The position numbers and the translations under genes are program-made. Positions 41,517 to 58,114 of a DNA stretch of 64,000 nucleotides are shown here, piece by piece (positions within the stretch are counted from its first letter, which is position 1; each line of letters begins with the position of its first letter). The notes under the pieces were generated by a model. It did not search any database, was not told the DNA's origin, and was given only the letters and a program-made list of their open reading frames with translations. Source of the stretch: Arthrobacter sp. CAU 1506 (lineage in GTDB: Bacteria; Actinomycetota; Actinomycetes; Actinomycetales; Micrococcaceae); NCBI RefSeq assembly GCF_005047635.1, contig NZ_SUKC01000008.1, positions 124,001 through 188,000 of the forward strand, written 5' to 3'.

Positions 41517-42704
41517 TTAGCGCTCCTGCAGAGCGCGGAGGCGCCGCGCGATCTCCCTGTAGGGAAGCCCCGCCGTTCCCGGTCCCCAAGAAAGTCGGAG
41601 CGCTCTCTCCACTCTGACTTGAGCGAGCCCCGCTGCCGTCAAGACATGACTCGGTTCGTAAGCTTGTGACGTGCAAGCTGAGCCGTTCGACAAGGCGACA
41701 ATATCCTTGAGCGCCACGATGGCGGCCTCCGAATCGACGCCAGGGATGGAGACGTTGAGCGTACTAGCAACCGTCCGATTCGGATCACCATTCACTTCGG
41801 CGCCCAGCGGGGCCAAAACTGTTAGGAGTTCTTCCTTGATCTCCATAGCCGCTTGCGATCGGTGCTCCGATTCTCTCAGCGCCAATGTGGACGCTGTTCC
41901 CATCCCGGCAATGAGAGGCACAGGAAGGGTCCCAGGGCGAAGGCCGCGTTCCTGCCCGCCGCCGAACATGAGCGGTGTGAGGGGGATCCTTTTGTAACCC
42001 CGCCGCCGGCAAATGAGTGCGCCGACGCCTTTGGGGCCGCCAATCTTGTGCCCAGAAACCGCCAGGAGATCGATACGCGGGTTCCTGAGCGGCTCAATCA
42101 GCTTGCCGAACGCTTGGGCGGCATCCACATGAAAGTATGCGTCGTGGCCCGACATCACCCTGCCGATTTCCGGAATCGGTTGGATTACTCCGGTTTCGTT
42201 GTTGACGGCCATCACAGACACCAGCAATGTGTCGGGACGCAGCGCGTCCGCGACAGCTTCGGGTGAAACCCATCCGCCCTCGGTGGGGGGCAGCAGCTCG
42301 ACTTCGAATCCCCGTGCCTGGAGAATTTCAAGAGGCTCCAGAACCGCCTTGTGCTCGATCTGCGTGGAGATGACATGGCGCTTGCCGCTGGCCTCGCCGT
42401 GTGCGGCTAGCCCTAAGATTGCTAAGTTGTCGCTCTCGGTGGCACCGCTGGTGAAGATGACCTCGTCGACCTGAGCGGCTACCACGGCCGCTACCTCGCC
42501 CCGCGCCTGTTTGACGCGCTCTTTAGCCCGCTGTCCGTAGGAATGCGTCCGACTGCCGGCATTGCCGAACTCGGACGCCATGTAAGTCATCACCTCTTCC
42601 GCCACGCGAGGATCTACGGGCGTGGTGGCGTTGAAGTCCAAGTAGACCGGCATTCCTGGTGTAAGGGGTCTCTCGGCGTTGGGATCGGAGTTCGTTACGC
42701 TCAT
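41517..42704 (-). CDS. dndA: Cysteine desulfurase of the phosphorothioation system
   Basis: 395-aa PLP enzyme (IscS/NifS fold) that takes sulfur from cysteine for DNA phosphorothioation. PLP Lys220 lies in SGHKIGGPKG, His118 in TQIEHKAVLE, and the persulfide Cys344 in SNGSACTSQAYEPSHVL; LRPGTLPV is the usual substrate-binding loop. ATG 42704 gives the normal start (PVYLDFNATTP near residue 20); the longer frame runs antisense into the dndB promoter. Divergent from dndB-E with a 92-base spacer containing a 24-base palindrome, the classical dnd arrangement. It could be a general IscS, but this placement supports DndA. Confidence 0.92.
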   Translation of the reverse strand: MSVTNSDPNAERPLTPGMPVYLDFNATTPVDPRVAEEVMTYMASEFGNAGSRTHSYGQRAKERVKQARGEVAAVVAAQVDEVIFTSGATESDNLAILGLAAHGEASGKRHVISTQIEHKAVLEPLEILQARGFEVELLPPTEGGWVSPEAVADALRPDTLLVSVMAVNNETGVIQPIPEIGRVMSGHDAYFHVDAAQAFGKLIEPLRNPRIDLLAVSGHKIGGPKGVGALICRRRGYKRIPLTPLMFGGGQERGLRPGTLPVPLIAGMGTASTLALRESEHRSQAAMEIKEELLTVLAPLGAEVNGDPNRTVASTLNVSIPGVDSEAAIVALKDIVALSNGSACTSQAYEPSHVLTAAGLAQVRVERALRLSWGPGTAGLPYREIARRLRALQER

Positions 42705-42757
42705 ATCTGCTAGCCTAACCCAGCGTATGGAGTCGTGTTTGGAGAAAAGTGGCGTGT

Positions 42758-42781
42758 TGTTTGGATGTAGACATCCAAACA
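42758..42781. promoter_or_regulatory. 24-base palindromic operator between dndA and dndB
   Basis: Arms TGTTTGGATGT / ACATCCAAACA separated by AG. An additional half-site TGTTTGGA lies at 42736-42743, 22 bases (about two helical turns) upstream on the same face. It covers the region between the divergent dnd starts and ends 15 bases before the dndB ATG. Likely bound by DndB or another dnd repressor. Confidence 0.7.
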
Positions 42782-42796
42782 TGATTGAATCGGAAC

Positions 42797-43951
42797 ATGC
42801 CACAAAAGAGGTCGATCCCTCCAATTCCGGGCGGCGGAGTCTCAAGCGCCAAGTCTGGCGAGTTCGAATATGCCTTTCCTGCCATCCGCGGCGTCCAGGC
42901 GGGGCACGAGTACTACGTGACTATGTGCCCCCTGCGAATCGTCCCCCGCCTCTTCCTATATAATGAGGAGGAGTTGCCCCCGGAGATGCGCGCGCAGCGT
43001 TCCCTCAATAAAGCGCGGGTGCCTGAGATGGCGCGCTACATCGTGGAGAATCCGGACAGCTATATCTTCTCAGCGCTGACCGCCTCGGTGAACGCTGACG
43101 TGCGCTTTGAATCGCCGCTAGGGGACACCGGCCCTGCGGAGCGGGTCGGTACGCTGACGATCCCCATGTCAGCCACTTTTATAATCAACGACGGGCAGCA
43201 CCGCCGAGCTGCCATTCAACAGGCTCTAACCGAGAATCCCGCTCTCGGTGACGAGACAATCGCCATAGTCATGTTCATTGACGTCGGCCTCAACCGTTGT
43301 CAACAAATGTTTGCTGACCTGAATCGCTACGCCATTCGCCCAGCAAAGTCGATCGGCGTACTCTACGATCATCGTGACCCGATGGCGGCCATCTCGAGGC
43401 TTGTCGTCTCCCAAAACCCGCTCCTCAGCGACTTGACCGAGATGGAGAGCAGCAACTTGGCGCCCCGCTCGCGGAAGCTGTTCACGTTATCTGCGCTGCA
43501 CACAGCGACGAGTGCCCTGCTAAATGAGGTCAAGACAAACTCATTGACTGAACGCGTCGACCTTGCAACCGAGTTCTGGCGCATCGTCGCTGGCCAGTTC
43601 TCGGTGTGGCAGCAGGTCTACCGAGGTGAAGTCACGGCTGGTGAAGTTCGTCAAGACTTCATCCACACCCACAGCATCGCGCTGCACGCCCTGGGCCGAG
43701 TGGGCAACACCCTGCTCCGCGAGAGTCCCATCCCATACGCCTGGGAGGAGCGTTTGGGGAAACTGCGCACCATCGACTGGCACCGCAACAACGCTGATAC
43801 TTGGGAAGGCCGCGCGACTACCGCCGGCAAGGTCAGCAAAAGCCGCACCAACGTGGAACTTACCACCGCATACATTCGAACCGTGCTTGGGATGCCGCTC
43901 CCTCCCGACGAACAGCGCGCAGAGGATGCTTTTACCCGAGGAGAGAAATGA
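42797..43951 (+). CDS. dndB: DNA sulfur modification protein DndB
   Basis: 384-aa DGQHR-type protein: FIINDGQHRRAAIQQAL carries the signature motif and MFADLNRYAIRPAKSIGVLYDHRD is the conserved following block. DndB is not needed for modification but tunes its level and is reported to repress dnd transcription. ATG 42797 is used rather than TTG 42785; neither has a strong ribosome site. It overlaps dndC by 4 bases. Its own operator candidate is just upstream. Confidence 0.92.
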   Translation: MPQKRSIPPIPGGGVSSAKSGEFEYAFPAIRGVQAGHEYYVTMCPLRIVPRLFLYNEEELPPEMRAQRSLNKARVPEMARYIVENPDSYIFSALTASVNADVRFESPLGDTGPAERVGTLTIPMSATFIINDGQHRRAAIQQALTENPALGDETIAIVMFIDVGLNRCQQMFADLNRYAIRPAKSIGVLYDHRDPMAAISRLVVSQNPLLSDLTEMESSNLAPRSRKLFTLSALHTATSALLNEVKTNSLTERVDLATEFWRIVAGQFSVWQQVYRGEVTAGEVRQDFIHTHSIALHALGRVGNTLLRESPIPYAWEERLGKLRTIDWHRNNADTWEGRATTAGKVSKSRTNVELTTAYIRTVLGMPLPPDEQRAEDAFTRGEK

Positions 43952-45492
43952 CGACGATCAGCCTGCCCATCCGCCCCCGGTCCCGGTCAGCCTTCGATGA
44001 TCTCGGTTTCGCCGCTACGATCGACGGGCTAGTAGCCCAGACTCAGCAGCTGTATCTAGCTGACGGCGTACCGTGGGTTGTAGGCTATTCAGGCGGGAAG
44101 GACTCTACCGCGACGCTCCAGATCGTCTGGCTCGCGCTTCAGGGGTTGGAACCAGAGCAACGCACGAAGCCGGTGCATGTCATCAGTACGGACACGCTTG
44201 TCGAGAATCCTGTCGTCTCCGCATGGGTGACCCACTCGCTCGAAGTCATGGCCAGCGCAGCAGAGGCCCATCATCTGCCGTTGACTCCGCATAAGCTGAC
44301 GCCCGCCGTTACCGATACGTTCTGGGTGAATCTCATCGGGCGCGGATACCCTGCGCCTCGCCCGAAGTTCCGCTGGTGCACCGAACGGCTAAAGATCAAG
44401 CCCTCGAACTCCTTCATCCGCGAGATGGTGCGCTCCCATGGCGAAGCCATTCTGGTGCTCGGCACCCGGAAGGCTGAAAGTTCCGGACGAAATGCTCGAA
44501 TGTCAGCTCTCGAGTCACGGCGGGTTCGAGACCTCCTAAGCCCTAACGAATCCTTGCCGAACGCCCTTGTCTACTCACCAGTTGAAAACTGGTCAAACGA
44601 TGACGTCTGGACATTCCTCATGCAGTCCCCCAATCCTTGGGGCTACTCCAACAAGGAACTGCTCACGATGTACCAAGGCGCCTCGGCCGACGGTGAGTGC
44701 CCGCTTGTCGTTGATTCTTCGACGCCCAGCTGTGGCAGCAGCCGCTTCGGCTGCTGGACCTGCACGCTTGTCGAACAGGACAAATCTATGGCAGCCATGA
44801 TCCAAAATGACGAAGAGAAGGAGTGGATGCTGCCCCTTCTGGAACTCCGCAACGCACTCGATATCCCCGATGACCGTCACCTCAGGGATTTCCGCCGAAT
44901 GAACGGCTCGGTGCAGCTCTTCCATGACCGGCCCATTCCGGGACCGTATACGCAGTCTGCCCGTGAGGACTGGCTGAGGCGGTTGCTAGAAGCACAGGTC
45001 TGGATCCGGGAGAACGGCCCGGAGTATGTCCGCTCGCTGGAGCTGGTGACCTTGGCGGAACTCGAGGAGATCCGACGAATTTGGGTCGTTGACAAGCACG
45101 AATTTGAGGACCATCTTCCCGGCCTCTATCAGGCTGCGCTCGGAGAGCCATATCCGGGCAAGCCGCTTGACGAGCACCTGCCTCTCGGGGCCGACATGAT
45201 TAAGTCCCTGCAACAGGTCGTTGGGGAAGATCGCCTTCATTTCGAGCTGGTTCGTGAACTGCTGGATATTGAGCAGCGCCACCGCTCCCAGGTGCGGCGC
45301 GCCGGATTATTTGAGTCCTTGGAAAAAGCTCTTCGGCGTGGTTTCTACGACGACGAAGCGGACGCCACACTTCGGGCGCAGAAGCGCAAGACGGCTATGG
45401 ATCGGACCGAGCAGGATCCGGAACCAGATGATCCTGACCCACTCGACATCGCCGATGGTTACGTGCGGGCGGTTTCGGAGTCCGCGTCATGA
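43948..45492 (+). CDS. dndC: DNA sulfur modification protein DndC (ATP pyrophosphatase, 4Fe-4S)
   Basis: 514-aa PAPS-reductase-like ATPase that activates the DNA backbone for sulfur transfer. The PP-loop is SGGKDS (48-53); Cys144 (FRWCTERLKI), Cys262, Cys269 and Cys272 (CGSSRFGCWTCTLV) match the four cluster cysteines of DndC. The C-terminal tail is acidic and Pro/Asp-rich. ATG 43948 overlaps the dndB stop (ATGA); the frame continues upstream only as a shadow. Confidence 0.95.
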   Translation: MTTISLPIRPRSRSAFDDLGFAATIDGLVAQTQQLYLADGVPWVVGYSGGKDSTATLQIVWLALQGLEPEQRTKPVHVISTDTLVENPVVSAWVTHSLEVMASAAEAHHLPLTPHKLTPAVTDTFWVNLIGRGYPAPRPKFRWCTERLKIKPSNSFIREMVRSHGEAILVLGTRKAESSGRNARMSALESRRVRDLLSPNESLPNALVYSPVENWSNDDVWTFLMQSPNPWGYSNKELLTMYQGASADGECPLVVDSSTPSCGSSRFGCWTCTLVEQDKSMAAMIQNDEEKEWMLPLLELRNALDIPDDRHLRDFRRMNGSVQLFHDRPIPGPYTQSAREDWLRRLLEAQVWIRENGPEYVRSLELVTLAELEEIRRIWVVDKHEFEDHLPGLYQAALGEPYPGKPLDEHLPLGADMIKSLQQVVGEDRLHFELVRELLDIEQRHRSQVRRAGLFESLEKALRRGFYDDEADATLRAQKRKTAMDRTEQDPEPDDPDPLDIADGYVRAVSESAS

Positions 45493-47465
45493 TCCTGAAT
45501 GAACTCGTTCTCCACAACGTGGGCACCTTCGCCGGACGGCACGTCATTGACCTAACTCCGCCCTCACCAGACAAGCCTATCGTGCTAGTCGGCGGCCTCA
45601 ATGGTGCTGGAAAGACCACTTTTCTGGAGTCGATTCAGCTGGCTCTCTACGGTTCGCTCGCGCACGGCACCGGACGACGTGCAGGCGGCTACGAAAACTA
45701 CCTCCGGGGCTTGATACATCGTGGCGTACCTGCAAGTGAAGGCGCTGTCATCGAACTTACCTTCACAGCGCACCAGGAGGGGGCGGAGCACACCTATACG
45801 GTGCGACGCAGCTGGAAGAACGCGGGCGCCTCGATCCGTGAACTCCTCTTGGTTTCCGTCAACGGTAGGTACGACCAGTCGCTGACCTCGACTTGGAATG
45901 AACACGTCGAGACGTTCCTCCCCCGAGGGATCGCTGGGCTCTTCTTCTTTGACGGTGAGCAGATCGAGGCCCTCGCCGACATGGACCGTTCCCGTCAGGT
46001 CCTCAGCTCGGCCCTTGCGGCCCTGCTTGGTCTCGATCTCGTGGAACGCCTCAGCACGGACCTCACTGTTCTCAAACGACGCCACAAGGGCGAGAAGGTG
46101 CCGGATGGTCTCCGTCAGATCGTCGAGGAGAAGAACCGACTGCTAACCGCTGGCCGCCAGGCTGAGGAAACTGCAGTCCAAGCCGAGGCAGGTCGCAGGA
46201 CCGAAATGGAGCGCCGTCAGAAGGTACTCCATGAGGCAACCGAAGCGTATCGCGCTGCCGGGGGCGATCTTCTCGATCGACGCGAGTCGGCGGAAGCAGA
46301 TGCAGGCATCGTGCGCTCGGGACTGGCACAGTGCGAGGACCACATCCGGCATGAGATTTCAGGGGTATCCCCACTGCTGCAGCTCGATGGACTTCTTGAA
46401 CAGTTGGGTGACCAAGTGCACCGCGAGGCCGACGCCCAGCGCAACACCCTGATGCTTGAAGCCTTCGAAGCGCGCGATTTCGCTGTGCTCCGGGAGCTTC
46501 GAGGCGCCAACATGAATGGGGCTACGGTTGCCGCTGTCGAACAGCTCCTCAGGAGTGATCGAGATGGGCGGCGCGTCTTCGTAGATGCCGAGGAAATCAT
46601 AGGATTCCGGGATCCGTCGGCGTTGGAAGCTTTGCTGACGACGACCCTCCCGGAGGCACGCAAACGCCTGCAGTCAGCTGTCGATCGGAGGGAAGAGCTC
46701 AAGAGCGAGCTAGACCAGGCTGAGCGAGTCTTGGCTGCCATACCCGATCCAGAAGCACTCGCCCCGCTCCGCCGGCAACGTGAGGATGCTCGCGACGAAC
46801 TCCTTCGAGCCGAAGCTGCCCACACGGTTGCTGTCGAACTCGTCGCTTCCACACGCGCGGCCAGCGCCAAGGCCAACGCAGCTTACGAAGCTGCGCTAGA
46901 CAAGGCAGCACTGGTGAATCTGACCGCCGACGACGATCGACGGCTGGTTGAGCACGTCGACCGTGTCCGTGCGACCTTGGAGGATCTGCGTATTGCTGCA
47001 GCACGCCGACACCTTGAGCGAATTTCGCAGTTGATCCTTGAGGCACTCGGCATGCTGCTCCGCAAGGAGAATCTCATCACCGACGTTCAGATTGACCCTG
47101 AGACGCACGAGGTATCGCTCACGGGCGCAGACGGTCGGCCGCTGCCCGCCAAGGACCTTTCCGCCGGGGAACGACAACTTCTGGCGGTCGCGCTCCTCTG
47201 GGGTCTGGCACGCGCATCGGGCCAGCCGCTCCCGGTGGTTATCGATACGCCGCTCGGGCGTCTCGACGGATCCCACCGTGAGCATTTACTGGAACGCTAT
47301 TTTCCAAATGCCAGTCATCAGGTGGTGTTGCTGTCGACGGACACCGAAATCGACGAGGAGGCCTTCGCCCGCATTTCGCCCAGCACTGGCCTCACATACC
47401 ACTTGGAATTCGACGTAAATGCCAATGCGACGCGCGTCGAAACCGGCTACTTCTGGGAGAAATAA
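45489..47465 (+). CDS. dndD: DNA sulfur modification protein DndD (SMC-like ATPase)
   Basis: 658-aa ATPase with a split nucleotide-binding head: Walker A GGLNGAGKTTF (35-45), FFFDGEQIEALADMD, then a long coiled coil (about 190-520) and the C-terminal signature LSAGERQLLAVAL with Walker B PVVIDTPLGRLD. DndD supplies ATP-driven DNA handling for the modification complex. ATG overlaps the dndC stop. The coil shows no CxxC zinc hook. Confidence 0.94.
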   Translation: MILNELVLHNVGTFAGRHVIDLTPPSPDKPIVLVGGLNGAGKTTFLESIQLALYGSLAHGTGRRAGGYENYLRGLIHRGVPASEGAVIELTFTAHQEGAEHTYTVRRSWKNAGASIRELLLVSVNGRYDQSLTSTWNEHVETFLPRGIAGLFFFDGEQIEALADMDRSRQVLSSALAALLGLDLVERLSTDLTVLKRRHKGEKVPDGLRQIVEEKNRLLTAGRQAEETAVQAEAGRRTEMERRQKVLHEATEAYRAAGGDLLDRRESAEADAGIVRSGLAQCEDHIRHEISGVSPLLQLDGLLEQLGDQVHREADAQRNTLMLEAFEARDFAVLRELRGANMNGATVAAVEQLLRSDRDGRRVFVDAEEIIGFRDPSALEALLTTTLPEARKRLQSAVDRREELKSELDQAERVLAAIPDPEALAPLRRQREDARDELLRAEAAHTVAVELVASTRAASAKANAAYEAALDKAALVNLTADDDRRLVEHVDRVRATLEDLRIAAARRHLERISQLILEALGMLLRKENLITDVQIDPETHEVSLTGADGRPLPAKDLSAGERQLLAVALLWGLARASGQPLPVVIDTPLGRLDGSHREHLLERYFPNASHQVVLLSTDTEIDEEAFARISPSTGLTYHLEFDVNANATRVETGYFWEK

Positions 47466-47860
47466 TGCCGATCGAACACATCCGCTTGTCGCAGACAGCC
47501 AGGGACCAACTCATCACGCTGAAGCGCCGCACGGGAATTCAGCACTGGAATGTCCTTTGCCGCTGGGCCCTCTGTCGTTCACTTGCTGAGCCTACCGCCC
47601 CGCCGGCACTCAATCTCACCTTGGACAGCAACGTTGAGATGAACTGGCGTACTTTCGGGGGCGACTTCGGCGACGTTTTGTGGGCACTGCTGAGGCTCCG
47701 CTGCCACAATGATGGCCTGCCATCGGAAGAGGAGACACTGGCGCAGCAGTTCCGGCTTCATCTGCATAGGGGCATCGGCTATCTCGTTGGAGACCCTCGG
47801 TCCTCCGATATCGCAGGACTTGCCAACATGGGTCTGAGTGAGCCGCCAGCTCCATCATGA
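47465..47860 (+). CDS. dndE: DNA sulfur modification protein DndE
   Basis: 131-aa small basic protein: HIRLSQTARDQLITLKRRTGIQHWNVLCRWALCRSL in two adjoining stretches is the DndE helical fold, with Lys/Arg residues that bind nicked DNA in characterised DndE. One-base overlap with dndD (TAATG). Completes the B-C-D-E operon. Confidence 0.92.
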   Translation: MPIEHIRLSQTARDQLITLKRRTGIQHWNVLCRWALCRSLAEPTAPPALNLTLDSNVEMNWRTFGGDFGDVLWALLRLRCHNDGLPSEEETLAQQFRLHLHRGIGYLVGDPRSSDIAGLANMGLSEPPAPS

Positions 47861-49305
47861 CCGACACGCCCATAGCGCGTCATAAGACGGCGCTCAGCCG
47901 AACAGGTCTCTCGCGGCCGATATCAACGGCAATCGCTGACGGTCTGTTGGGGCAGGATAATACGGTCTTCGACTATGGCTGCGGCAAAGGCGACGACATA
48001 CGGCACCTTCTGGCCCTCGGTTATGCTATCGAGGGATGGGACCCGGTGCACCGACCGAATGTGGACAGACGAGCAGCCGAAGTCGTGAACCTGGGCTATG
48101 TTCTCAACGTCATTGAAAGCAAGAAAGAGCGTGCCCAGACCCTGCAGTCAGCGTGGGCTCTCGCAACGGGATTGCTTGTGGTATCCGCACGTTTGACGTG
48201 GGATGGCCGGAACCTCGGCGGGCGCCCCCTCGGGGACGGAGTCATCACGCGCACGGGCACTTTTCAGAAATTCTACGAACAGACCGAACTAGCAGATTGG
48301 ATCGAACAGACGCTGGATGTCAAGCCGTACGCAGCTGCCCCGGGCGTCTTCTACGTGTTCCGGGATAAGGCGGCAGCACACCGATTCACCGCGTCGAGGA
48401 TTTATACCTACCGCCCACGCATCACAATTGATCCGCATGTCCTCTATGAAGGGAATCAGAAAACGCTCGCTCCCCTGCTGTCCTTCATGCAGGCGCACGC
48501 CCGCCCGCCTCGGCCAGTTGAACTCCAGCGTGAGGAACTCTTGCGGATTCAGGATGTATTGGGAAGTGTAGGGCGCGCCGAGCGCCTGATCCGGCAGGTC
48601 ACCTCTGACAGCTATTGGGAGCAGGTTGTCCTCCGGCGGCGGGCCGAGCTCCTGATCTACGTGGCGCTTTCCCGGTTTGGCCGGAGGCCCAGTTTCTCGC
48701 AACTGGACAGAGTCTTGGGCGCCGATATCCGAATGCTCTTCGGCGCTTATAGGGAGGCTTGTCTACAGGGTGATCGACTTCTTCTTGCCTGTGGAAACCA
48801 GGCGAAGCTATTTATGAGTGCCCGAAGTTCGAAAATCGGGAAGCAGACGCCTACTGCACTGTACGTGCACCACTCCGCTATGGCCCAGATCCCGCCCATA
48901 CTCCAGGTCTATGAAGGGTGTGCGCGGGTGCTTGCTGGTACGGTCGAGCACGCCAACATGATCAAGCTTTCGGTGGCAGAACCCAAAGTTTCATATCTTA
49001 GCTATCCCGACTTCGACCGGGTTCCGCATCCGACCCTTCAGTCAGCCGTCACGGTCAATTTGCGGAATCTCACGGTCGACTTCAGGGATTACCGCACTTC
49101 GGAAAATCCGCCCCTCCTTCATCGCAAAGAAGAGTTCCTGGGCCCTGACGACACGAATCGAACTCGGTACGCGCGCCTCACTCGATCAGAGATGAAAGCC
49201 GGCCTCTACGATCATCCAGAGTGCATCGGAACGCTCAAAGGATGGATGGAAACTCTCGAGGCCGCACACGTGAAGATCCAAGGTCACCGGCTTATTCGCG
49301 GCTGA
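47857..49305 (+). CDS. Phosphorothioation-associated putative methyltransferase
   Basis: 482 aa. The N-terminal SAM-binding motif VFDYGCGKGDDIRHL (37-51) is followed by IEGWDPVHRP and NLGYVLNVIE, matching the family of DNA-phosphorothioation-associated putative methyltransferases; the C-terminal half is specific to it. Overlaps dndE by 4 bases, so it is part of the modification operon. Its target (DNA base, phosphorothioate or protein) is not established. Followed by a strong hairpin. Confidence 0.85.
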   Translation: MTDTPIARHKTALSRTGLSRPISTAIADGLLGQDNTVFDYGCGKGDDIRHLLALGYAIEGWDPVHRPNVDRRAAEVVNLGYVLNVIESKKERAQTLQSAWALATGLLVVSARLTWDGRNLGGRPLGDGVITRTGTFQKFYEQTELADWIEQTLDVKPYAAAPGVFYVFRDKAAAHRFTASRIYTYRPRITIDPHVLYEGNQKTLAPLLSFMQAHARPPRPVELQREELLRIQDVLGSVGRAERLIRQVTSDSYWEQVVLRRRAELLIYVALSRFGRRPSFSQLDRVLGADIRMLFGAYREACLQGDRLLLACGNQAKLFMSARSSKIGKQTPTALYVHHSAMAQIPPILQVYEGCARVLAGTVEHANMIKLSVAEPKVSYLSYPDFDRVPHPTLQSAVTVNLRNLTVDFRDYRTSENPPLLHRKEEFLGPDDTNRTRYARLTRSEMKAGLYDHPECIGTLKGWMETLEAAHVKIQGHRLIRG

Positions 49306-49414: not shown

Positions 49415-49885
49415 TTACCATTTCACCCCGCCGAGTAGCTCATCGACGCTCATGGGTTTAATACCGCCCTCTTGAGCCAAAGCAGTAGTGACGACTTCGA
49501 GCACGACCAACGCCGCTGTCTGGTGGCGGGTGTTGATCTGTTCCTGGATGTACTCCAGCCCGCCGTTGGCGTACTCCTCGAAGATCCGGATCCGTTCCTC
49601 AAGACGGGCGGCGTCGAGGATCTCGGGGTCATCCGAAACGGCATTGACAGCGATCATGCTGATTAAGGAATCACTGTAGAGGGGGTTGGTCAACACATCG
49701 ATGCGGATACCCTCGCCCCCTGTTCCGTTTAGCGGGACGCGCCGGTCCTGATTCCACCCGACGGCGGCGGCGAAGAGAAGAACATCGCGGTAAGTCGGGA
49801 AGCCGGCCTCTAGCTGCATCACTTCAATGAGCACAGCATGATCCTGTGGCCGCCTCGCGCGAACGTCTGTTTGTGGACTCGTCAT
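49415..49885 (-). CDS. Dnd system-associated protein 4-like
   Basis: 156 aa. FPTYRDVLLFAAAVGWNQDRRVPL, SLISMIAVNAVSDDPEIL and RLEERIRIFEEYANGGLE in sequence are the conserved blocks I associate with dnd-associated protein 4, a small protein of unknown biochemical role found beside dnd genes. No catalytic residue stands out. The ATG overlaps the stop of the SMC-like ATPase (ATGA). Last gene of the minus-strand effector operon; perhaps an adaptor or regulator of the ATPase. Confidence 0.75.
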   Translation of the reverse strand: MTSPQTDVRARRPQDHAVLIEVMQLEAGFPTYRDVLLFAAAVGWNQDRRVPLNGTGGEGIRIDVLTNPLYSDSLISMIAVNAVSDDPEILDAARLEERIRIFEEYANGGLEYIQEQINTRHQTAALVVLEVVTTALAQEGGIKPMSVDELLGGVKW

Positions 49886-51942
49886 CGAATCTCGATCTCC
49901 TGCAGCTTGGAGTACGCCGTCTCCGACGGCCGAATGTATGGGTAGGGTGTGCCGCTCAACTCGATGTCCTCCGGCTCGACTCCACTTCCAGACGCGTGAC
50001 TCTGGATGACCCCGAGGTGGCTTAGGAAGGGTCGAAGTTCAGTCAGCACATTCCCGAGGCCTTGGCTCTTGCTCACCAGAACCACCAACTGCGGGGCCAA
50101 TTTGGCAAGCGCCCTCGAAACCGCCGTCTGATAGTTTACGTCGAGTGATCCGAATGCCGCGTCCATGACGATTGGGTATACGCCTGCGTCCGGCGCACCA
50201 CTGACTTCCGCATCCTGAAGCTCTTTGCTCTCCCGGGCCAAGGTCGAGACAGCGGCGACAAAGCTTAGGCTCAGGATCTGGTTCTCCCCAGTGGACTTGC
50301 CGACCGGAAGGTTCGTAACTTCGTCGTAGAGCGACAATTCGAAGTTTTCACTCAAAGTAGGAATGTAGGACTTTTTGAATGTGATTTCGCTGTAGATCTC
50401 CTTTAGCTTCGCGTCCAGGCGCCGTCTCATGTCCGCCTCTCGGATCGCAAGGATTTCTGCAAGCGCCTTTCGGACGTGAGTGACGAGGTTTGAGCGCCCC
50501 AAGGCACGAGCCGCCAGCTCATCCTCGATCTCGGCTTTGCTGCGTTCGCGGTTCTGGTGTTCCAGATCCTTCGCGATGGTCTGCAGATCGTTCTTCAAGC
50601 CGCCGATCTCCTGCAGGCGGGCGGCTATCCGATTATCGAGTTCAATACGTTTGCTCTCAAGGAGTGCGACCTCCTCGTGCCGGCTGTCCCGTAGCTTGTA
50701 GTCGAGTTCCGAGCTCTCCGCCACCAACTCGCTGATGCGATCATTCAGGTCATCGATTTCTTGGATGACGGTGCTGAGTGCTTCGCGAAGATCGTTACGG
50801 GCGCCTCCGATCAGCTCGATCTGGCCGCGCAATTTCTGCCACGCCGTCTCGACTTCCTGGAGTCCGGCCTTATGCCTCCACTCCTGAACCTGTTTCCATG
50901 CGGGCGAATGCTCGGCCAACTTGGTACCGCAGATGCAGGTCTCTTCGTCGAGCAGCTGGTCGACGAACTCGCGCTTGAGGGGAGCCGGAAGGGCGCCACG
51001 CCGGTAAAGGCTCTGTGCCATTGCCTCTGTCTTACCGCAGAGAGGATCGGTGAAGGCCAGAAACCCGCGGGTTGCGATCAGGTGAGAACGTCTGTTCTGA
51101 GCCGCTTCCATCTCATCGCGAGCGAGGTTTAGATCCTTACCTACCTGATCGCGTCTTTCTTGGATTGGAGCCGCTTCGGCGTGTTGTCGAAGAACGGCGA
51201 GGACCCCTTCTCGTTCTTCCGAGAGCGCAGCATGCTTGCCCTCGGACACGACAAGCGCATCTTTTGTTGTTGTCTCACGCTCATTCAGGTTGTCGATGGT
51301 TTCCTGAATCTTGGATAGGGCCCCACCGTCCTTTTTACGCAGGTCCGCCGTTACTTTGTTGTCGACCTTCTTAAGATGGGCTAAGGCTCTCTCCACTTGT
51401 TCGAGCCCTAGGAGCATCTTGATGTCTTTTTGGGCTTCTGCGTATGCGCCACCCGCAACCAGCTTCTCGATCCGCTCACCATTGAAGAAGAAGAAGCGAC
51501 TGAAGCTCTCGGGAAGGATGCTCGAAACCTTGACTTGCGGACCCTCAACGATCTCAGAGGAGCCGTCCGGACTGGTCACCCACAACTGAATCTGGGGAGC
51601 GCCCGACTGCTGGAGATCGGATTCTTTGCGCAAGCTCATCGAGCGTAAGAGTCGGTAGTTGAGCCCCTCGTGCTCGAAATGGATGTCTACGGCGACGGTT
51701 ATGCTGGCACCAATGGCGGTACGAGCCCACGCGCCGTCGCTGACCAAGCGGTTCTTCTGCTCGAGGTCGTCCGACAGAATGCCGTATAAGCACCATGTGA
51801 AAGCGTTGAGGAAGGTGGTTTTGCCGGCGCCATTCGCGCCAAAAAGCATGGCCACAGGGCGCACGTCGTCCGTTGAAAGGTCGAACGTCTGCTCACCTTC
51901 AAACTGACGGAAGTTGGTGAGAGTGATGGACTGTAATTTCAA
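49882..51942 (-). CDS. SMC/RecF-like AAA ATPase of the dnd-linked effector operon
   Basis: 686 aa with Walker A GANGAGKTTF (about 35-44), FFFNGERIEKLVAGGAY, a long coiled coil (about 185-560) and Walker B YPIVMDAAFGSLD. At mid-coil a CICGTKLAEHSP motif resembles a Rad50-type zinc hook, with CxC rather than CxxC. It is similar in plan to DndD yet has this hook, and sits in the opposite operon, so it is a separate ATPase, probably a DNA-sensing or translocating part of a restriction complex. Coupled by ATGA overlaps to the 53-aa protein upstream and dnd-associated protein 4 downstream. Confidence 0.85.
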   Translation of the reverse strand: MKLQSITLTNFRQFEGEQTFDLSTDDVRPVAMLFGANGAGKTTFLNAFTWCLYGILSDDLEQKNRLVSDGAWARTAIGASITVAVDIHFEHEGLNYRLLRSMSLRKESDLQQSGAPQIQLWVTSPDGSSEIVEGPQVKVSSILPESFSRFFFFNGERIEKLVAGGAYAEAQKDIKMLLGLEQVERALAHLKKVDNKVTADLRKKDGGALSKIQETIDNLNERETTTKDALVVSEGKHAALSEEREGVLAVLRQHAEAAPIQERRDQVGKDLNLARDEMEAAQNRRSHLIATRGFLAFTDPLCGKTEAMAQSLYRRGALPAPLKREFVDQLLDEETCICGTKLAEHSPAWKQVQEWRHKAGLQEVETAWQKLRGQIELIGGARNDLREALSTVIQEIDDLNDRISELVAESSELDYKLRDSRHEEVALLESKRIELDNRIAARLQEIGGLKNDLQTIAKDLEHQNRERSKAEIEDELAARALGRSNLVTHVRKALAEILAIREADMRRRLDAKLKEIYSEITFKKSYIPTLSENFELSLYDEVTNLPVGKSTGENQILSLSFVAAVSTLARESKELQDAEVSGAPDAGVYPIVMDAAFGSLDVNYQTAVSRALAKLAPQLVVLVSKSQGLGNVLTELRPFLSHLGVIQSHASGSGVEPEDIELSGTPYPYIRPSETAYSKLQEIEIR

Positions 51943-52100
51943 GGCAGGATCTCCTTGACTACCGTGAGCAAGTCATCGGTTGCGTCGTAGGTGGATAGGT
52001 GCAATTTCGACCTCTCGATCTCTAGCACCCGCCTCAGCAGGTGCTGCTCCTCCTCCGTCAGTTCATCTAGCACCTGGCGCTCATTCCGTGCCTCAGCCAT
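51939..52100 (-). CDS. 53-aa protein of the effector operon
   Basis: Short acidic helical protein (MAEARNERQVLDELTEEEQ... ending VVKEILP). ATG 52100 has AAAGGAG eight bases upstream, the best ribosome site in this operon; the longer frame to 52130 lacks one. Its TGA overlaps the ATPase ATG, so it is coupled to it. Predicted as one or two helices. It may be a subunit or assembly factor of the ATPase, or a small inhibitor. No family recognised. Confidence 0.7.
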   Translation of the reverse strand: MAEARNERQVLDELTEEEQHLLRRVLEIERSKLHLSTYDATDDLLTVVKEILP

Positions 52101-52145
52101 CGTGCCCGCTCCTTTCAGGTTTCCTTGCAATTTGTCAATTGGCTA

Positions 52146-54281
52146 TCACAGGTCCATGAGTTGGTACCGCTCCTTCAGCGGACGCAGCACCTTCAGAGTT
52201 TCCTCGTAGTTCTCCGATAACCTACCGAACTCGTTGGCGCGCTGGAGTTCGCGGATCAGGAGTGTTCGCTCGACGTCGAAGTTGATCGGTGCGTCGGCGG
52301 GCGGCACCGCGAGGTAGTCAAAGATGATTGCATGCGTTTTGCCTTCCGCGCGCCGCAGCAGTCGTCCTCGACGCTGAATGAATTGGCGAGGGTTTGAGCT
52401 GCTAGCCAGCAGATAGCCGATTCGTGCATCGGGGATGTCAACGCCCTCATCGAGACATTTCATTGCTGCAAGGATCCGAAGGTCGTTGCCCGAGCTGAAC
52501 CTCCTTAGTAGTTCCTTCCGTTTGATACGCGGCGTCTCGCCAATATAGTCATGAACTGAGAGGCGTAAGCCATTACCGATCATCCCCGTGACTTCGGAGA
52601 GTTGCCTTTGCCCCGGCGCTTCGCCGAATGGTCGGGGACATCGACCTTCAGCGCAATAGACCAGCTGAAACCAGCTGTCACGGTTTTCACGCAGGTCTGC
52701 TTCGAGTGCGGCGACCTTACCCCCGGCGTGCCCAAGTATGTTCGCCCGATCCCGTAATAGTCGACCAAGAACTGATTCGTCTTGAGAGTCCGCGATATTT
52801 TCGCCCGAGGCGATCCGTTGGGCAATCTGCGCGGTTAGATCGACATAGAACTGAGTTTCATCCGCAGCTAATTCCACTAGGCGGGGGTAATAGTGATATC
52901 GGGTGAGGGCGCCCATGGCAATCGCCTGACTCATCGGCAATTCAAATACGATCTCCCCGAAGTACTCGATGAGTTCATCGGTGCCTTCATCGTCGAACCA
53001 GCGCTCGGGTGTGGCGGACAGAGCCAGTCGGTATGTTGCGTTCGTTGGTAGCGCTGCCAAGTAGGTGGAGGATCCTAGGTTGTGCGCTTCGTCAGCTATC
53101 ACGGCAAGGTGCTGCGAGATGCGCGAGAGCACTAACTGGAATTTAGAACCTGCGAAGGACGAGTTAGTTGCGACCATTACGACTAGCGATCGCTGGCCCA
53201 TCCGAAGGGAGCTTAATTGGCTTTCGACAATCGGCTGCCACTTTTTGCTGGATTCATAAATCGCGATCGGTTTAACGCCGAACTCCTCGACCTCCGTGAT
53301 CCATTGGTCGACCAGATGCTGCTGCGGAGCAACAATTACCGTCACAAGCGGCTGTTCGTGTTCCCTGAGGACGCGGCTCAGCTGGGTGACAGCGATCATT
53401 GCCGTTTTGGTTTTACCGGTGCCGGTCGCCATCTTGAGGATGCCCCGCCCCTGGTTACCCAGCCATGATTCGACAGCATTACGTTGGTAGTCGCGGACTG
53501 TCAGCCAATTGGGGATGGTGAGATGGGGAGGCTCCAAGGTGGCTACTGGTGCGGGCGTTAGGGCCGTGTCCCTTCCTAGCAGGGACGCTTTTGGGCGCTC
53601 TTTTGCCAGCTCGAGTAAGCGTGCGCGGGCCACGCCGGGGAAAGGTTCGATACGCAGGGATGGTGTCTGGTTGGACCACAGCTCTTGGAAGTCGCGCTCC
53701 AGGCGTAGTGCCCGGGCACCGTCGCCTGTCACCCATCCCTTGTACACTTCAACCGATTCGAAGTTTGCCATAAGGCCGCCGTAGGTTTCGTTGCTGCTGC
53801 CTGTGAAACCAACCAAGTCACCTAGATCGTCGCGGAAAATGCCGATCTTCTCGTGATAGATGCCGATGCGGCCTTCCTGCTCTATGAATGCCAATTTGAT
53901 ATCCAGCCGGCCTTCCGCGATGAGGCGCCCCAGCAGTCCGAGGCCCTCCAGCACAGCTTCAGAACCTTCCGAATCGAGTTCGCGAACGGTGGCGCGCTCG
54001 ATAACGGCGCGCACATCATAGCCCCGCTCGATGTCGACGATGTCGTCTTCGTTGAGATGTGGAGATGCGATTAGGCGCATCGTCCCGCCACGCTCGGAGA
54101 ACGTCTCGATTCCCCTTGCGTACAGCGCCAGACTGGTCGAGGTAAAGTAACCAACTGCGCGGCTGTAACTTGTAGCAACCGTAAAGGCCGGCACGAAGAA
54201 ATTTGCGACAACATCTTCCTGGTCACTACGGTAGCGATCATTTAGGTGCAGTGAGCGAAGTCCTAGAGGTACTTCCGTCAC
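52146..54281 (-). CDS. PLD-nuclease / superfamily 2 helicase (dnd restriction-type)
   Basis: 711 aa. The N-terminal phospholipase-D-type nuclease has HxK in IYHEKIGIF (His143, Lys145), then Asp151 and GSSNE (161-165). The helicase core follows: MATGTGKTKTA (285-294), DEAH box 397-400, LSATPERW (421-428) and motif VI QFIQRRGRLLRR near 640. One HKD motif per chain implies a dimeric active site. This nuclease-helicase plan fits type III/ISP-like restriction factors and annotations of dnd-linked restriction enzymes. It overlaps the sigma/alpha-CTD-like gene by 4 bases and precedes the 53-aa gene by 45. Confidence 0.88.
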   Translation of the reverse strand: MTEVPLGLRSLHLNDRYRSDQEDVVANFFVPAFTVATSYSRAVGYFTSTSLALYARGIETFSERGGTMRLIASPHLNEDDIVDIERGYDVRAVIERATVRELDSEGSEAVLEGLGLLGRLIAEGRLDIKLAFIEQEGRIGIYHEKIGIFRDDLGDLVGFTGSSNETYGGLMANFESVEVYKGWVTGDGARALRLERDFQELWSNQTPSLRIEPFPGVARARLLELAKERPKASLLGRDTALTPAPVATLEPPHLTIPNWLTVRDYQRNAVESWLGNQGRGILKMATGTGKTKTAMIAVTQLSRVLREHEQPLVTVIVAPQQHLVDQWITEVEEFGVKPIAIYESSKKWQPIVESQLSSLRMGQRSLVVMVATNSSFAGSKFQLVLSRISQHLAVIADEAHNLGSSTYLAALPTNATYRLALSATPERWFDDEGTDELIEYFGEIVFELPMSQAIAMGALTRYHYYPRLVELAADETQFYVDLTAQIAQRIASGENIADSQDESVLGRLLRDRANILGHAGGKVAALEADLRENRDSWFQLVYCAEGRCPRPFGEAPGQRQLSEVTGMIGNGLRLSVHDYIGETPRIKRKELLRRFSSGNDLRILAAMKCLDEGVDIPDARIGYLLASSSNPRQFIQRRGRLLRRAEGKTHAIIFDYLAVPPADAPINFDVERTLLIRELQRANEFGRLSENYEETLKVLRPLKERYQLMDL

Positions 54282-56476
54282 AGCAAGTCCAAGATCTCGT
54301 CGACGTTACCGCGGTGCTTCGGGCGCTCAGCGCTGCCTCTCCCGTCTAGATGCTCGCGGATGCCGACCAGTAGTTCGGCAATATCCTCATCGCCGCGCTC
54401 TCGAAAAGCCCCAATAATGCTTATAACAGGGCTGGGCTCCGGCAGCCCGAGAGCAACGGCCAAGGATCGGCGAGCGCCCTCGGGGTCGAGGGTGTGGGCC
54501 GCTCCGGTCAGGCTGAGAGCGTCCAGAAGAGGCTGACCGACGGGCTCGCTGGCGGGCTCGAAGCTGAAACTACCGTCGTCCCCGAGCACTAGGAAAGCTT
54601 CTGTGTCAACTGCTATGTCCTGGTCCATTAAGAAGCGACGGATGGTTCCAAAGGAGGGCTGAGTACCCGTCCATGCGACAAGCTGTGGGCCAAGCGGCGA
54701 AGGTAATTGCCGCGACTCACCAGGCTGGAGGCCGACGATCTTGGCAATCGCTACAGGAGCGGCTGACCCGCTGCCCCGCAGATGGTCTGTGGTGATGCGG
54801 ACGCGGTAGGCCCACGCGTCGGCCCTGCGGAATAGACGGCGCGTACTCGCGGGAGCTTTGCGGATTTCATGGTTTCCCGAATACAGCCGGACGACTCCGT
54901 CCTGGACCTCGAACGGTTTCATGTTGGCGTAGGCGATCACGCTGTTCGCCGTCACGGTGTATCGTCCCGTGATGTACTCGATCAGGTCATTCAGGCTGGC
55001 TCGTCCACCGCTCCTGGCCACCTGCTCCCGGATAACGGAACGGATACCAGCATACGCATCCATTCCCCACTCCCTCAGCGCCCAGAGGTCCCGATCGACA
55101 CGTTCAAAGCGGTCGTCTTGGCTCAGCGCGTTCTTCACTGACCCAACGCTGCGATCAAACGAGAAACGGTCGACAATCTCCTGTCCGCTCAAAGGGGAGC
55201 CTCCCACCGACAGCACAGCGGCGGCATAGTCACCGACGGACCCGACACGTGTGTAAACGGCGTCTCCATCTACGATGTAACCGCAACGCCGCAACCACGC
55301 AGCCGTTAGCTCGGGCAGCCGTCCCGGCTGACTGGACTCGACCAGGTCAAGCTCGTCGAGCCGGGCGACACCGTATTGGTCTGCCCGCTCCTCCAGCTGA
55401 GTTCGCGTAAGCATTTCAGCGGACTGCATAGTCGGCACAACACACCAGCGGTCCTCGATTTCGTACGCGTCGTCCAGCCCATCTAGCACACGCCAAACGG
55501 GCTGACCCACGAAATCGATTGCTTTTCCGAGCGCTGGCATCAGGGCAAGCAGGTCGTCAAGCGGACGAATTGTTCCGATAAGCGTGCGGGCGGTATCCGC
55601 GACCATCGCTAAGGGGCCACCTTCCGAGATGAAGCCGAGCATGGCACCGCGAGCCTTGCCCTCAATCTGACGGATACGCTCACGGGTTACGCCGTACGAT
55701 CTACCAATTTCATCCAGAGTGAGGGGAGCGTCTGCGAACAACCTGTTCGCAAGAACGTCTACGGCCCGTTTATCCAGTGTTGCAAAGGCTTTGTCGAATA
55801 GGGCGGCGACATCTGTCTCGGACTCGCCATCCAGAATTTCCTCAGCCCGCAGCATTTCGAGCCGGCGCCTGGCCATGAGCACTAAGCCGGGACTGCCCGG
55901 GGGCAATGGGGCCCCAAGCAACGGCTGCTCCGGCAGGCCAACAACAGCGTACCAAGCGGCAATTTGCCTAAGATCTTCGATGACGGACGCTAACTGAGCT
56001 GGCGGTGCCTCCGGCTGTTGCTCTTCATCCGAAGATGCAAGGGTGGTCACTGTGGGGGTAGTGGCGGATGCCGAGGAGTCTGCCAGCGCCTGCAAGATGG
56101 AGTCTATTGTGCCGACACCGATCTGGCGCCACTCCATCAATTCATAAAGTCTGAGCGGGATAAGGTCGCCGGCTGTGCTGCAACTATTACGTCCGAGGGC
56201 GTTGACCGCCCTTGCCGGTAGGCGGATCTCGAGTAGGTTTAGCTCGGGGTTCAAACCAGGAAAGATTTGCCCGACGGTCCACTGTGTGAGTCTCTCCATA
56301 GCAAGCTCAGAGACGTGTGCAAGCCTCTGAATACGAGTCGTCAGACTCACGCCGTCGATCATTTCCGTCCAGGTTGGAAGGGTGCCAGGCTCAGCAACTC
56401 CCTTTAGCCAAGGGAAAGCGTCGAGCCAACTCCGCGGACGCTGGTCGTCAAAGCCTCGCACTAGCTCGTCAGTCAT
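54278..56476 (-). CDS. Composite RNA-polymerase-like DNA-binding protein (alpha-CTD-like, sigma-4-like, HARE-like)
   Basis: 732 aa. Residues 84-131 (LPARAVNALGRNSCSTAGDL... YELMEWRQIGVGTIDSIL) resemble the helix-hairpin-helix alpha-subunit C-terminal domain; residues 235-280 (LDKRAVDVLANRLFADAP, then LTLDEIGRSYGVTRERIRQIE) closely resemble sigma-70 region 4. Near 455-510 is a winged helix like the HARE/RNA-polymerase-delta domain (SPLSGQEIVDRFSFD, FERVDRDLWALREWG). The rest is mixed and unassigned, with no sigma region 2 or nuclease motif. ATG 56476 has a purine-rich AAGGGGG site. It heads or nearly heads the effector operon and is coupled to the PLD-helicase. Likely a DNA-recognition or transcription-sensing component. 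Confidence 0.8.
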   Translation of the reverse strand: MTDELVRGFDDQRPRSWLDAFPWLKGVAEPGTLPTWTEMIDGVSLTTRIQRLAHVSELAMERLTQWTVGQIFPGLNPELNLLEIRLPARAVNALGRNSCSTAGDLIPLRLYELMEWRQIGVGTIDSILQALADSSASATTPTVTTLASSDEEQQPEAPPAQLASVIEDLRQIAAWYAVVGLPEQPLLGAPLPPGSPGLVLMARRRLEMLRAEEILDGESETDVAALFDKAFATLDKRAVDVLANRLFADAPLTLDEIGRSYGVTRERIRQIEGKARGAMLGFISEGGPLAMVADTARTLIGTIRPLDDLLALMPALGKAIDFVGQPVWRVLDGLDDAYEIEDRWCVVPTMQSAEMLTRTQLEERADQYGVARLDELDLVESSQPGRLPELTAAWLRRCGYIVDGDAVYTRVGSVGDYAAAVLSVGGSPLSGQEIVDRFSFDRSVGSVKNALSQDDRFERVDRDLWALREWGMDAYAGIRSVIREQVARSGGRASLNDLIEYITGRYTVTANSVIAYANMKPFEVQDGVVRLYSGNHEIRKAPASTRRLFRRADAWAYRVRITTDHLRGSGSAAPVAIAKIVGLQPGESRQLPSPLGPQLVAWTGTQPSFGTIRRFLMDQDIAVDTEAFLVLGDDGSFSFEPASEPVGQPLLDALSLTGAAHTLDPEGARRSLAVALGLPEPSPVISIIGAFRERGDEDIAELLVGIREHLDGRGSAERPKHRGNVDEILDLL

Positions 56477-56840
56477 GCGATGAGCCCCCTTCCTCCACCG
56501 TTGACCGGACCGCCCGATATCCGCGGCTTGTACGGTGGTCCGGCCAAACTGATGTGGCCCGCGACGCCGTGACTTTTTCATCTCGGAGGTACATGGGAAG
56601 CGGCTCATGCCCCCAGCAAGCACGGAATACCCGCAGCAGCGGGCTGCAGTCAGTAATGACCTTCGCTGGTAGGGGCACCCACTTGAGGGCGCTCCCTGAC
56701 GGGGAGAGGTCCGCGCTGCGGGGATGTGTGGAGCATTCCTGTCGATGATGGCACCATCCCGTGTGAAACCAGTACACTTCCGCAGGAGTTATTGATGCGC
56801 GGACCCAGATGCCACCGCTCACTAGTTCCCCCAACACGTG
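56469..56840 (-). CDS. Possible small hypothetical protein at the head of the effector operon
   Basis: 123 codons from GTG 56840, preceded by GAGGTGA at ten bases and an in-frame stop further upstream; the TGA overlaps the next ATG by 8 bases, the coupling style of this operon. Codon third positions are mostly G or C, and the end (LRVFRACWGHEPLPMYLRDE) looks protein-like. Cys/His-rich near residues 27-38 (WCHHRQEC). It could be chance, since the first half is low in hydrophobic core residues. No family recognised. Confidence 0.38.
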   Translation of the reverse strand, partial: HVLGELVSGGIWVRASITPAEVYWFHTGWCHHRQECSTHPRSADLSPSGSALKWVPLPAKVITDCSPLLRVFRACWGHEPLPMYLRDEKVTASRATSVWPDHRTSRGYRAVRSTVEEGGSSHD

Positions 56841-57897: not shown

Positions 57898-58114
57898 AGT
57901 TTCCTTAACCTCCCAAGTGAGCACCGCCGTCGTCAATTATCCAGTGATGCAGCCCACATGCAAGCACATTCGGAAAATAGTGCGCCAGAACCTGCGCAAA
58001 ACTGAATTCAACAGCGCCTAACGCAAAATTTCTGCTCTTGTCGGATCTTGGCCGCCGCCCTACAGTTGCATGGATCACACCGGCATCCATGCCTACACCC
58101 CAAGGTGGAAGACC

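What the first reader, a model, noticed from the sequence alone, without database searches (positions are those of the whole stretch)
49415..56840. Candidate new phosphorothioate-dependent effector operon facing dndBCDE
Five or six tightly coupled minus-strand genes end 75 bases past the terminator of the dnd modification operon: a composite alpha-CTD/sigma-4/HARE-like protein, a PLD-nuclease helicase, a 53-aa protein, an SMC-like ATPase with a hook-like CxC, and dnd-associated protein 4. I recognise no DndF, DndG or DndH. Established: dnd modification is often paired with restriction modules, and haloarchaea use a different four-gene module (PbeABCD). Inference: this operon is the restriction or exclusion arm, with the helicase-nuclease as executor.
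Basis: partly seen in the sequence, partly recalled or inferred. Interest (0 to 1): 0.8.

Follow-up and report, generated by a model that had tools for sequence, protein, structure and literature searches.

The report
Known Pbe antiviral operon, extra gene
This operon is a bacterial copy of a published antiviral gene set (PbeABCD) that works with sulfur-marked DNA, but it starts with an extra, conserved gene whose protein joins two DNA-contacting parts of RNA polymerase and whose role is unknown.

Summary
The observation largely holds; the claim of a new effector operon does not. The last four minus-strand genes are PbeA (PLD nuclease-helicase), PbeB (53 aa), PbeC (CxC ABC ATPase) and PbeD (dnd_assoc_4), in the order of the antiviral cassette published in 2019 and already known in bacteria. 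A full dnd set lies beside them. Outside that four-gene definition is the first gene, here called S4H (54278-56476, 732 aa). Its protein has an RNA-polymerase alpha-CTD and a sigma region 4 whose -35 recognition helix matches SigA; the rest is not securely identified. It overlaps pbeA by 4 bases. Full-length relatives head the cassette in five other actinobacterial loci, each with a dnd or dnd-associated gene nearby. In all, 11 of 26 other bacterial PbeA loci hold a sigma4 protein (also Rhodobacterales, Rhizobium, an erythrobacterium, Lactiplantibacillus), against 0 of 6 haloarchaeal loci and 0 of 20 control stretches. S4H relatives also sit in MZA-like, Zorya-like, GmrSD and DUF4011 loci. Best reading: PbeABCD plus a bacterial promoter-DNA-binding accessory, regulator or targeting subunit. 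A bolder reading, not excluded: bait for phage proteins that attack host RNA polymerase. No function was tested.

The parts
54278..56476 (-). S4H, 732 aa: alpha-CTD (aa 73-136), sigma-70 region 4 (aa 217-289), helix-rich segments (about 300-530), beta-rich part (about 548-641; B3-like fold only a weak lead), helical C-terminus
   Evidence: PF04545 and PF03118 (aa numbers there are +49); AlphaFold model with VIA-align Z 9.1-10.6 to sigma4 and up to 9.7 to alpha-CTD; start conserved
52146..54281 (-). PbeA: PLD-family nuclease (HxK...GSxN) fused to an SF2 helicase, 711 aa
   Evidence: PADLOC PbeA E 4e-248; TIGR04095 E 6e-163, 543 bits, under its 600-bit cut-off; motifs aligned
51939..52100 (-). 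PbeB-type small protein, 53 aa
   Evidence: position between pbeA and pbeC; conserved in 4 aligned rows; no NCBIfam or PADLOC match, one Pfam match at E 0.099 under its cut-off
49882..51942 (-). PbeC: CxC-type ABC ATPase, 686 aa, TTG start
   Evidence: best PADLOC model PbeC, E 3e-240, 797 bits, against 138 bits for the best DndD model; Walker motifs and C-I-C at aa 336-338
49415..49885 (-). PbeD, DNA phosphorothioation-associated protein 4, 156 aa
   Evidence: TIGR04062 85.6 bits over cut-off 74.25; no PADLOC match
41517..42845 (-). dndA, cysteine desulfurase (open frame; true start may be internal)
   Evidence: TIGR03235 491.9 bits, cut-off 480
42785..43951 (+). dndB
   Evidence: TIGR03233 over cut-off
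43801..45492 (+). dndC (open frame; true start probably later)
   Evidence: TIGR03183 over cut-off
45489..47465 (+). dndD
   Evidence: TIGR03185 over cut-off
47465..47860 (+). dndE
   Evidence: TIGR03184 over cut-off
47857..49305 (+). DNA phosphorothioation-associated putative methyltransferase
   Evidence: TIGR04096 612 bits, cut-off 150

Best explanation
The operon is a bacterial PbeABCD cassette headed by a conserved fifth gene, S4H. Shown by sequence: the identity and order of pbeA-B-C-D, the dnd modification genes beside them, and S4H as an alpha-CTD + sigma-region-4 protein whose gene overlaps pbeA. Inferred from published work: the dnd genes put phosphorothioates on host DNA, and PbeABCD blocks replication of unmarked invading DNA only when the host carries the mark. 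Inferred here: S4H binds promoter-type DNA (UP-like plus -35-like) through its alpha-CTD and sigma4. It either sets expression of the cassette or brings PbeA-PbeC-PbeD to transcribed, promoter-rich invading DNA. I put the Pbe identity at 0.95, S4H as a functional part of the system at about 0.65, and promoter-type DNA binding as its mode at about 0.45.
For: PADLOC PbeA and PbeC at E 4e-248 and 3e-240, TIGR04062 over cut-off; same order A-B-C-D as in Xiong 2019; hook and nuclease motifs aligned over the survey loci. S4H heads the same cassette in L014 Geodermatophilus, L015 Saccharothrix, L027 Arthrobacter plasmid, L035 and L036, each with a dnd or dnd-associated gene in the fetched stretch; S4H identity 52-75%, PbeA 69-90%. 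Sigma4 proteins in 11 of 26 other bacterial PbeA loci (L027, L035 and L036 among them; L014 and L015 left out because S4H itself found them), 9 of the 11 directly upstream of pbeA on the same strand; 0 of 20 control stretches of 18 kb. The sigma4 stretch YGVTRERIRQIE is identical to a SigA in the PDB; the Arg and Asn of the alpha-CTD motif are invariant in the 6 rows of A11 and one of these rows aligns with solved alpha-CTDs.
Against: The published archaeal cassette has no fifth gene, and 19 of 36 surveyed PbeA loci have no sigma4 or S4H-like protein, so S4H is not essential to the type. The rest of S4H beyond alpha-CTD and sigma4 is not identified with confidence, and Foldseek gave no match at E 0.001 or better for the model. 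S4H relatives occur in quite different defence loci and as partial matches on 12 mycobacterial plasmids whose surroundings I did not look at, so its role may not be specific to Pbe or to defence. No DNA binding or protection was measured. TIGR04095 is under its curated cut-off, and PADLOC PbeC models also match the true DndD strongly (E 1e-198).
Confidence: 0.8

Rival explanations
1. S4H is only the local transcription regulator of the operon: it binds its own promoter in the 0.5-kb gap upstream and takes no part in defence.
For: First gene of the operon, after a 524-bp gap with no supported gene; alpha-CTD and sigma4 are promoter-binding domains.
Against: At 732 aa with further domains it is large for a regulator; in MZA-like L013 and in L034 its counterpart is a late gene of the operon; the upstream DNA of window and L027 does not align well, so no shared operator was seen.
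Confidence: 0.3
2. S4H is an integrated decoy: its alpha-CTD and sigma4 are bait for phage proteins that bind or modify these same parts of host RNA polymerase, and the contact releases PbeABCD.
For: It carries just the two domains that phage takeover proteins such as T4 AsiA and Alt attack (recalled, no call); host-like recognition residues kept; sigma4 proteins in 11 of 26 bacterial and 0 of 6 haloarchaeal Pbe loci; relatives in several unrelated defence loci.
Against: No phage protein was tested; conserved DNA-contact residues are equally expected for plain DNA binding; published PbeABCD works without it; 0 of 6 archaeal loci is a small number from one class.
Confidence: 0.12
3. A new phosphorothioate effector operon unrelated to published modules.
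For: No DndF, G or H model appears in the match lists of the operon's genes (long lists are capped at 25 rows).
Against: PbeA, PbeC and PbeD match published families along most of their length in canonical order.
Confidence: 0.02

Closest known systems
DndCDEA-PbeABCD (Xiong et al. 2019, PMC6459918)
   Same: pbeA-B-C-D in the same order, small PbeB, AAA/ABC PbeC, dnd modification genes beside it (section 8 read)
   Different: bacterial; dndB present; convergent rather than following dnd; additional head gene S4H; the word sigma does not occur in the paper's main text
CxC ABC-ATPase/DndE-anchored systems (Rakesh et al. 2024, PMC10853773)
   Same: HKD nuclease-SF2 helicase, small protein, CxC ATPase, placed next to Dnd (section 16 read)
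   Different: the list of genes in section 16 holds no sigma4 protein; 'sigma' occurs once in the main text, about DndH; its figures and supplements were not seen
MzaA of the MZA anti-phage system (NCBIfam NF041931)
   Same: a sigma-region-4 protein inside a multi-gene defence operon
   Different: only the sigma4 part of S4H matches (44.5 bits, cut-off 800; profile positions 639-697 of 726); sigma4 is C-terminal in the MzaA model, central in S4H
SigA/RpoD region 4 and RNA polymerase alpha-CTD
   Same: fold and recognition residues
   Different: no sigma region 2 or 3 and no alpha N-terminal domain reported

Membership tests
PbeABCD cassette | PbeA: PLD (HKD) domain fused to SF2 helicase | tested here: met
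   (Pfam PLDc_2 at 25.5 bits is just under its 27-bit cut-off; the motif is present)
PbeABCD cassette | PbeB: small rapidly evolving protein between A and C | tested here: met
   53 aa, by position and by conservation in 4 aligned rows; no NCBIfam or PADLOC model matched
PbeABCD cassette | PbeC: ABC ATPase with CxC hook | tested here: met
   best PADLOC model PbeC, E 3e-240; C-I-C
PbeABCD cassette | PbeD: small last gene (dnd_assoc_4) | tested here: met
   TIGR04062 over cut-off; no PADLOC match
PbeABCD cassette | PbeD is a DndE relative (claim of Rakesh et al.) | tested here: inconclusive
   hhalign of 6 PbeD against 5 DndE: probability 0.3%, with few sequences; AlphaFold model too poor, pLDDT 37
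PbeABCD cassette | order A-B-C-D beside phosphorothioation genes | tested here: met
PbeABCD cassette | protection that needs the phosphorothioate mark and the four genes; no cleavage of viral DNA | not testable with these tools
   wet-lab property, reported for the archaeal system
DndFGH | dndF, dndG, dndH in the genome | tested here: inconclusive
   no match to TIGR03237 or TIGR03238 in the own genome, but controls were silent; TIGR03236 not searched
Sigma-70 factor (for S4H) | region 2 (core binding, -10 recognition) besides region 4 | tested here: not met
   Pfam reports only Sigma70_r4 and alpha-CTD at E 0.1
MzaA (for S4H) | full-length match to NF041931 | tested here: not met
   44.5 bits, cut-off 800, sigma4 part only
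HARE-HTH (for S4H) | HARE-HTH domain | tested here: inconclusive
   no Pfam hit; several helix-rich segments in the model, not identified singly

The most novel reading that the evidence does not exclude
S4H is a general bacterial defence sensor: a decoy of RNA polymerase (alpha-CTD plus sigma4 in one protein) that several unrelated anti-phage systems (Pbe, MZA-like, Zorya-like, GmrSD, DUF4011 loci) have taken up to detect phage proteins that seize host transcription, and that in Pbe loci releases the nuclease-helicase.
Probability: 0.12. Interest if true: 0.85.

Novelty: new variant of a known kind. Interest (0 to 1): 0.5.

Why it matters
How PbeABCD senses and stops invaders is disputed in print: one group sees a block of replication without cleavage, another argues for cleavage. 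A conserved fifth gene that couples the cassette to promoter DNA or to RNA polymerase would give a handle on the trigger in bacteria, and would link Pbe to other systems that carry relatives of the same protein.

Tried and rejected
Rejected: the sixth ORF (56469-56837), not supported by conservation upstream of S4H. Rejected: S4H as a sigma factor or as MzaA. PbeD-DndE kinship could not be shown. B3-like domain in S4H: Foldseek lists plant B3-containing chains at probability 0.66-1.00 but E 0.05-0.2, and prints no range; B3 is not among the 50 VIA-align rows; a profile of that segment found nothing in PDB sequences. So it stays a lead. No shared operator was seen upstream of S4H. Literature: a search for a sigma/alpha-CTD link to phosphorothioation gave 0 papers holding 3 of 4 terms; the 2020 ABC-ATPase paper that first described CxC systems and the 2012 HARE-HTH paper are not held, so an earlier mention of the sigma4 partner cannot be excluded. 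A search for 'MzaA' returned only noise in the rows shown.

Limits of the survey: the 36 loci are not independent (three L. plantarum plasmids; the sigma4 proteins of L029 and L056 are 72% identical). Of the 25 plasmid records, 21 were opened; H32, H33, H37 and H39 were not, and L047 was dropped as a cut copy of L057. The sigma4 profile was trained partly on counted loci; independent support is Pfam PF04545 over its cut-off in the window, L014, L015, L029, L032, L034 and L039 and the deposited name 'sigma factor-like helix-turn-helix' in L029, L032, L034, L048, L049, L056 and L057. The 20 control stretches come from six actinobacterial genomes only, so they do not match the proteobacterial, Bacillota or archaeal loci.

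Full report
What is there. Five minus-strand genes lie at 49415-56476, end to end against dndBCDE and the dnd-related methyltransferase gene, with dndA on the far side. Neighbouring frames overlap by 4 bases at S4H/pbeA, pbeB/pbeC and pbeC/pbeD; pbeB has its own ribosome-binding site and starts 45 bases after pbeA. In the stretches measured, the dnd genes and the operon have 60% and 58% G+C against 63-70% in the three other parts of the window.

What the last four genes are. The helicase matches PADLOC PbeA over aa 8-694 of 711 (E 4e-248) and the NCBI 'DNA phosphorothioation system restriction enzyme' domain at E 6e-163, though at 543 bits, under that model's 600-bit cut-off. The ATPase matches PADLOC PbeC best (E 3e-240, 797 bits) and DndD models far less (138 bits); the PADLOC PbeC set is not specific by itself, for the window's true DndD also matches some of its models (E 1e-198). 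The last gene passes the cut-off of dnd_assoc_4 but has no PADLOC match. The 53-aa gene stands where PbeB stands and is conserved in the four rows aligned, but no NCBIfam or PADLOC model matched it. This is gene for gene the order of the cassette that Xiong et al. named PbeABCD (PMC6459918, section 8 read), found by them in bacteria too (passage), and that Rakesh et al. (PMC10853773, sections 16 and 24 read) describe as the CxC ABC-ATPase system. In the survey alignment the HxK...GSxN motif is present in 31 of 36 PbeA; the other five (L032, L046, L054, L055, L057) lack the PLD part; the two helicase motifs shown are in 36 of 36. Of 32 PbeC rows, 27 have CxC, 4 have CxxC and one is a fragment; four loci gave no PbeC row.

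What the first gene is. S4H starts at ATG 56476. Pfam finds sigma-70 region 4 (E 1e-9) and alpha-CTD (E 5e-5, 23.4 bits against a 23.8 cut-off). An AlphaFold model from six sequences (mean pLDDT 70.7, pTM 0.40) has no Foldseek match at E 0.001 or better as a whole. By VIA-align its aa 217-289 match solved sigma region 4 (for instance 1ku7, Z 9.7, rmsd 1.8 over 71 residues, 38% identity) and aa 73-136 match solved alpha-CTD (for instance 8igr, Z 9.5, rmsd 1.5 over 61, 21% identity). The helix that reads the -35 element is identical over YGVTRERIRQIE to the best-matching SigA of the PDB. The Arg and Asn of the alpha-CTD motif are invariant in six rows, and one of those rows (L034) aligns them with solved alpha-CTDs; that these are DNA-contacting residues (R265, N268 in E. 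coli) is recalled, not from a call. Sigma regions 2 and 3 are not reported, so it is not a sigma factor.

Where S4H occurs. In the order, 7 of 396 genomes including the own one have an S4H match at E 1e-15; in the stretches I took from the six others, tblastn with the window's proteins found no PbeA beyond short helicase matches in one. PbeA searches found 7 of 394 genomes in the class and 7 of 396 in the phylum, own genome counted in both and G569 found twice, and 25 plasmids. Full-length S4H heads the cassette in L014, L015, L027, L035 and L036, overlapping or almost touching pbeA, with at least one dnd or dnd-associated gene in each fetched stretch; in L035 that is only the methyltransferase gene.

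Wider survey. In 36 PbeA loci, 15 have a sigma4-bearing protein, 2 have an S4H-like protein in which no sigma4 was found (L037, L063), and 19 have none. Without the window and the three loci found only through S4H or sigma4 itself, it is 11 of 32: 11 of 26 bacterial (three of them full-length S4H heading the cassette: L027, L035, L036) and 0 of 6 haloarchaeal. Nine of the 11 lie directly upstream of pbeA on the same strand; L034 has it downstream and L039 on the opposite strand. In 20 stretches of 18 kb taken from six actinobacterial genomes at round-number places the same profile found nothing. Outside the actinobacterial clade the shared part is mainly sigma4 with or without alpha-CTD, so common descent of the whole protein is not shown there. 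L039, from the same class as the window, matches over nearly the full profile. 12 of the 36 loci gave a DndC match, but that of L030 is an SspD; annotated dnd genes add L048, L049 and L056, so 14 of 36 have dnd modification genes in the fetched stretch, and L035 the methyltransferase only.

S4H away from Pbe. Relatives lie next to GmrSD (L008) and next to Zorya-like genes (L010: ZorA over its cut-off, ZorD-like under it); in L011 just downstream of a DndB-family gene; in L013 with MzaB-, MzaC- and MzaE-like proteins (all under the NCBI cut-offs) and a C5 methyltransferase; and in L051 near a DUF4011 protein. In L009 the neighbour is an AAA_14/DUF4143 protein that I do not know as defence; L012 was not annotated; partial matches on 12 mycobacterial plasmids were not followed.

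How it likely works. Shown: genes, order, domains, conservation. From published work on the archaeal system: the mark made by the dnd proteins lets PbeABCD tell self from foreign and block replication; pbeB, pbeC and pbeD are needed and pbeA partly. Inferred: S4H adds contact to promoter-type DNA or to the transcription machinery of the bacterial host. Whether that is regulation, targeting or bait for phage proteins is open.

Verdict. A known kind of system, with a conserved accessory gene that the four-gene definition does not include and that I did not find in what I could read about Pbe.

Noticed in passing
L030 (Rhizobium indigoferae plasmid), L042 (Sphingomonadaceae plasmid), L039: Pbe-type genes sit beside Ssp-type phosphorothioation genes instead of dnd: PADLOC SspA/B/C/D in L042, SspB/C/D in L030, SspC/D in L039. 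Nine papers hold both SspABCD and PbeABCD (listing seen); I did not read them for this pairing.
   Followed up: partly
L032, L055, L057 (L. plantarum plasmids); L046, L054 (haloarchaea): PbeA lacks the PLD nuclease part; in the three L. plantarum loci a 1080-1147 aa sigma4 protein lies directly upstream.
   Followed up: partly
L008, L010, L011, L013, L051: S4H relatives at GmrSD (L008), Zorya-like (L010), DndB-family (L011), MZA-like (L013) and DUF4011 (L051) genes.
   Followed up: partly
hits H6-H17 (12 mycobacterial plasmids): Partial matches (23-44% of S4H, C-terminal half) to hypothetical or winged-helix proteins; surroundings not examined.
   Followed up: no
L016:9098-10756 (Arthrobacter sp. 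Bi26): An S4H relative split over two open frames with no Pbe gene found by tblastn in the 20.8-kb stretch: looks like a remnant.
   Followed up: no
L048, L049 (Rhizobium plasmids): A RelA/SpoT-domain gene sits just upstream of the sigma4 protein and PbeA in both.
   Followed up: no
L027 (Arthrobacter sp. StoSoilB13 plasmid): pbeA and pbeC each match in two overlapping pieces: decay or sequencing error.
   Followed up: no
L050 (Nonomuraea gerenzanensis): Two S4H-like genes within about 6 kb.
   Followed up: no
window 57001-57936: Double AsnC/Lrp-type regulator upstream of the operon on the same strand, with transporter and amidohydrolase-like genes beyond: probably the flank of the island.
   Followed up: no
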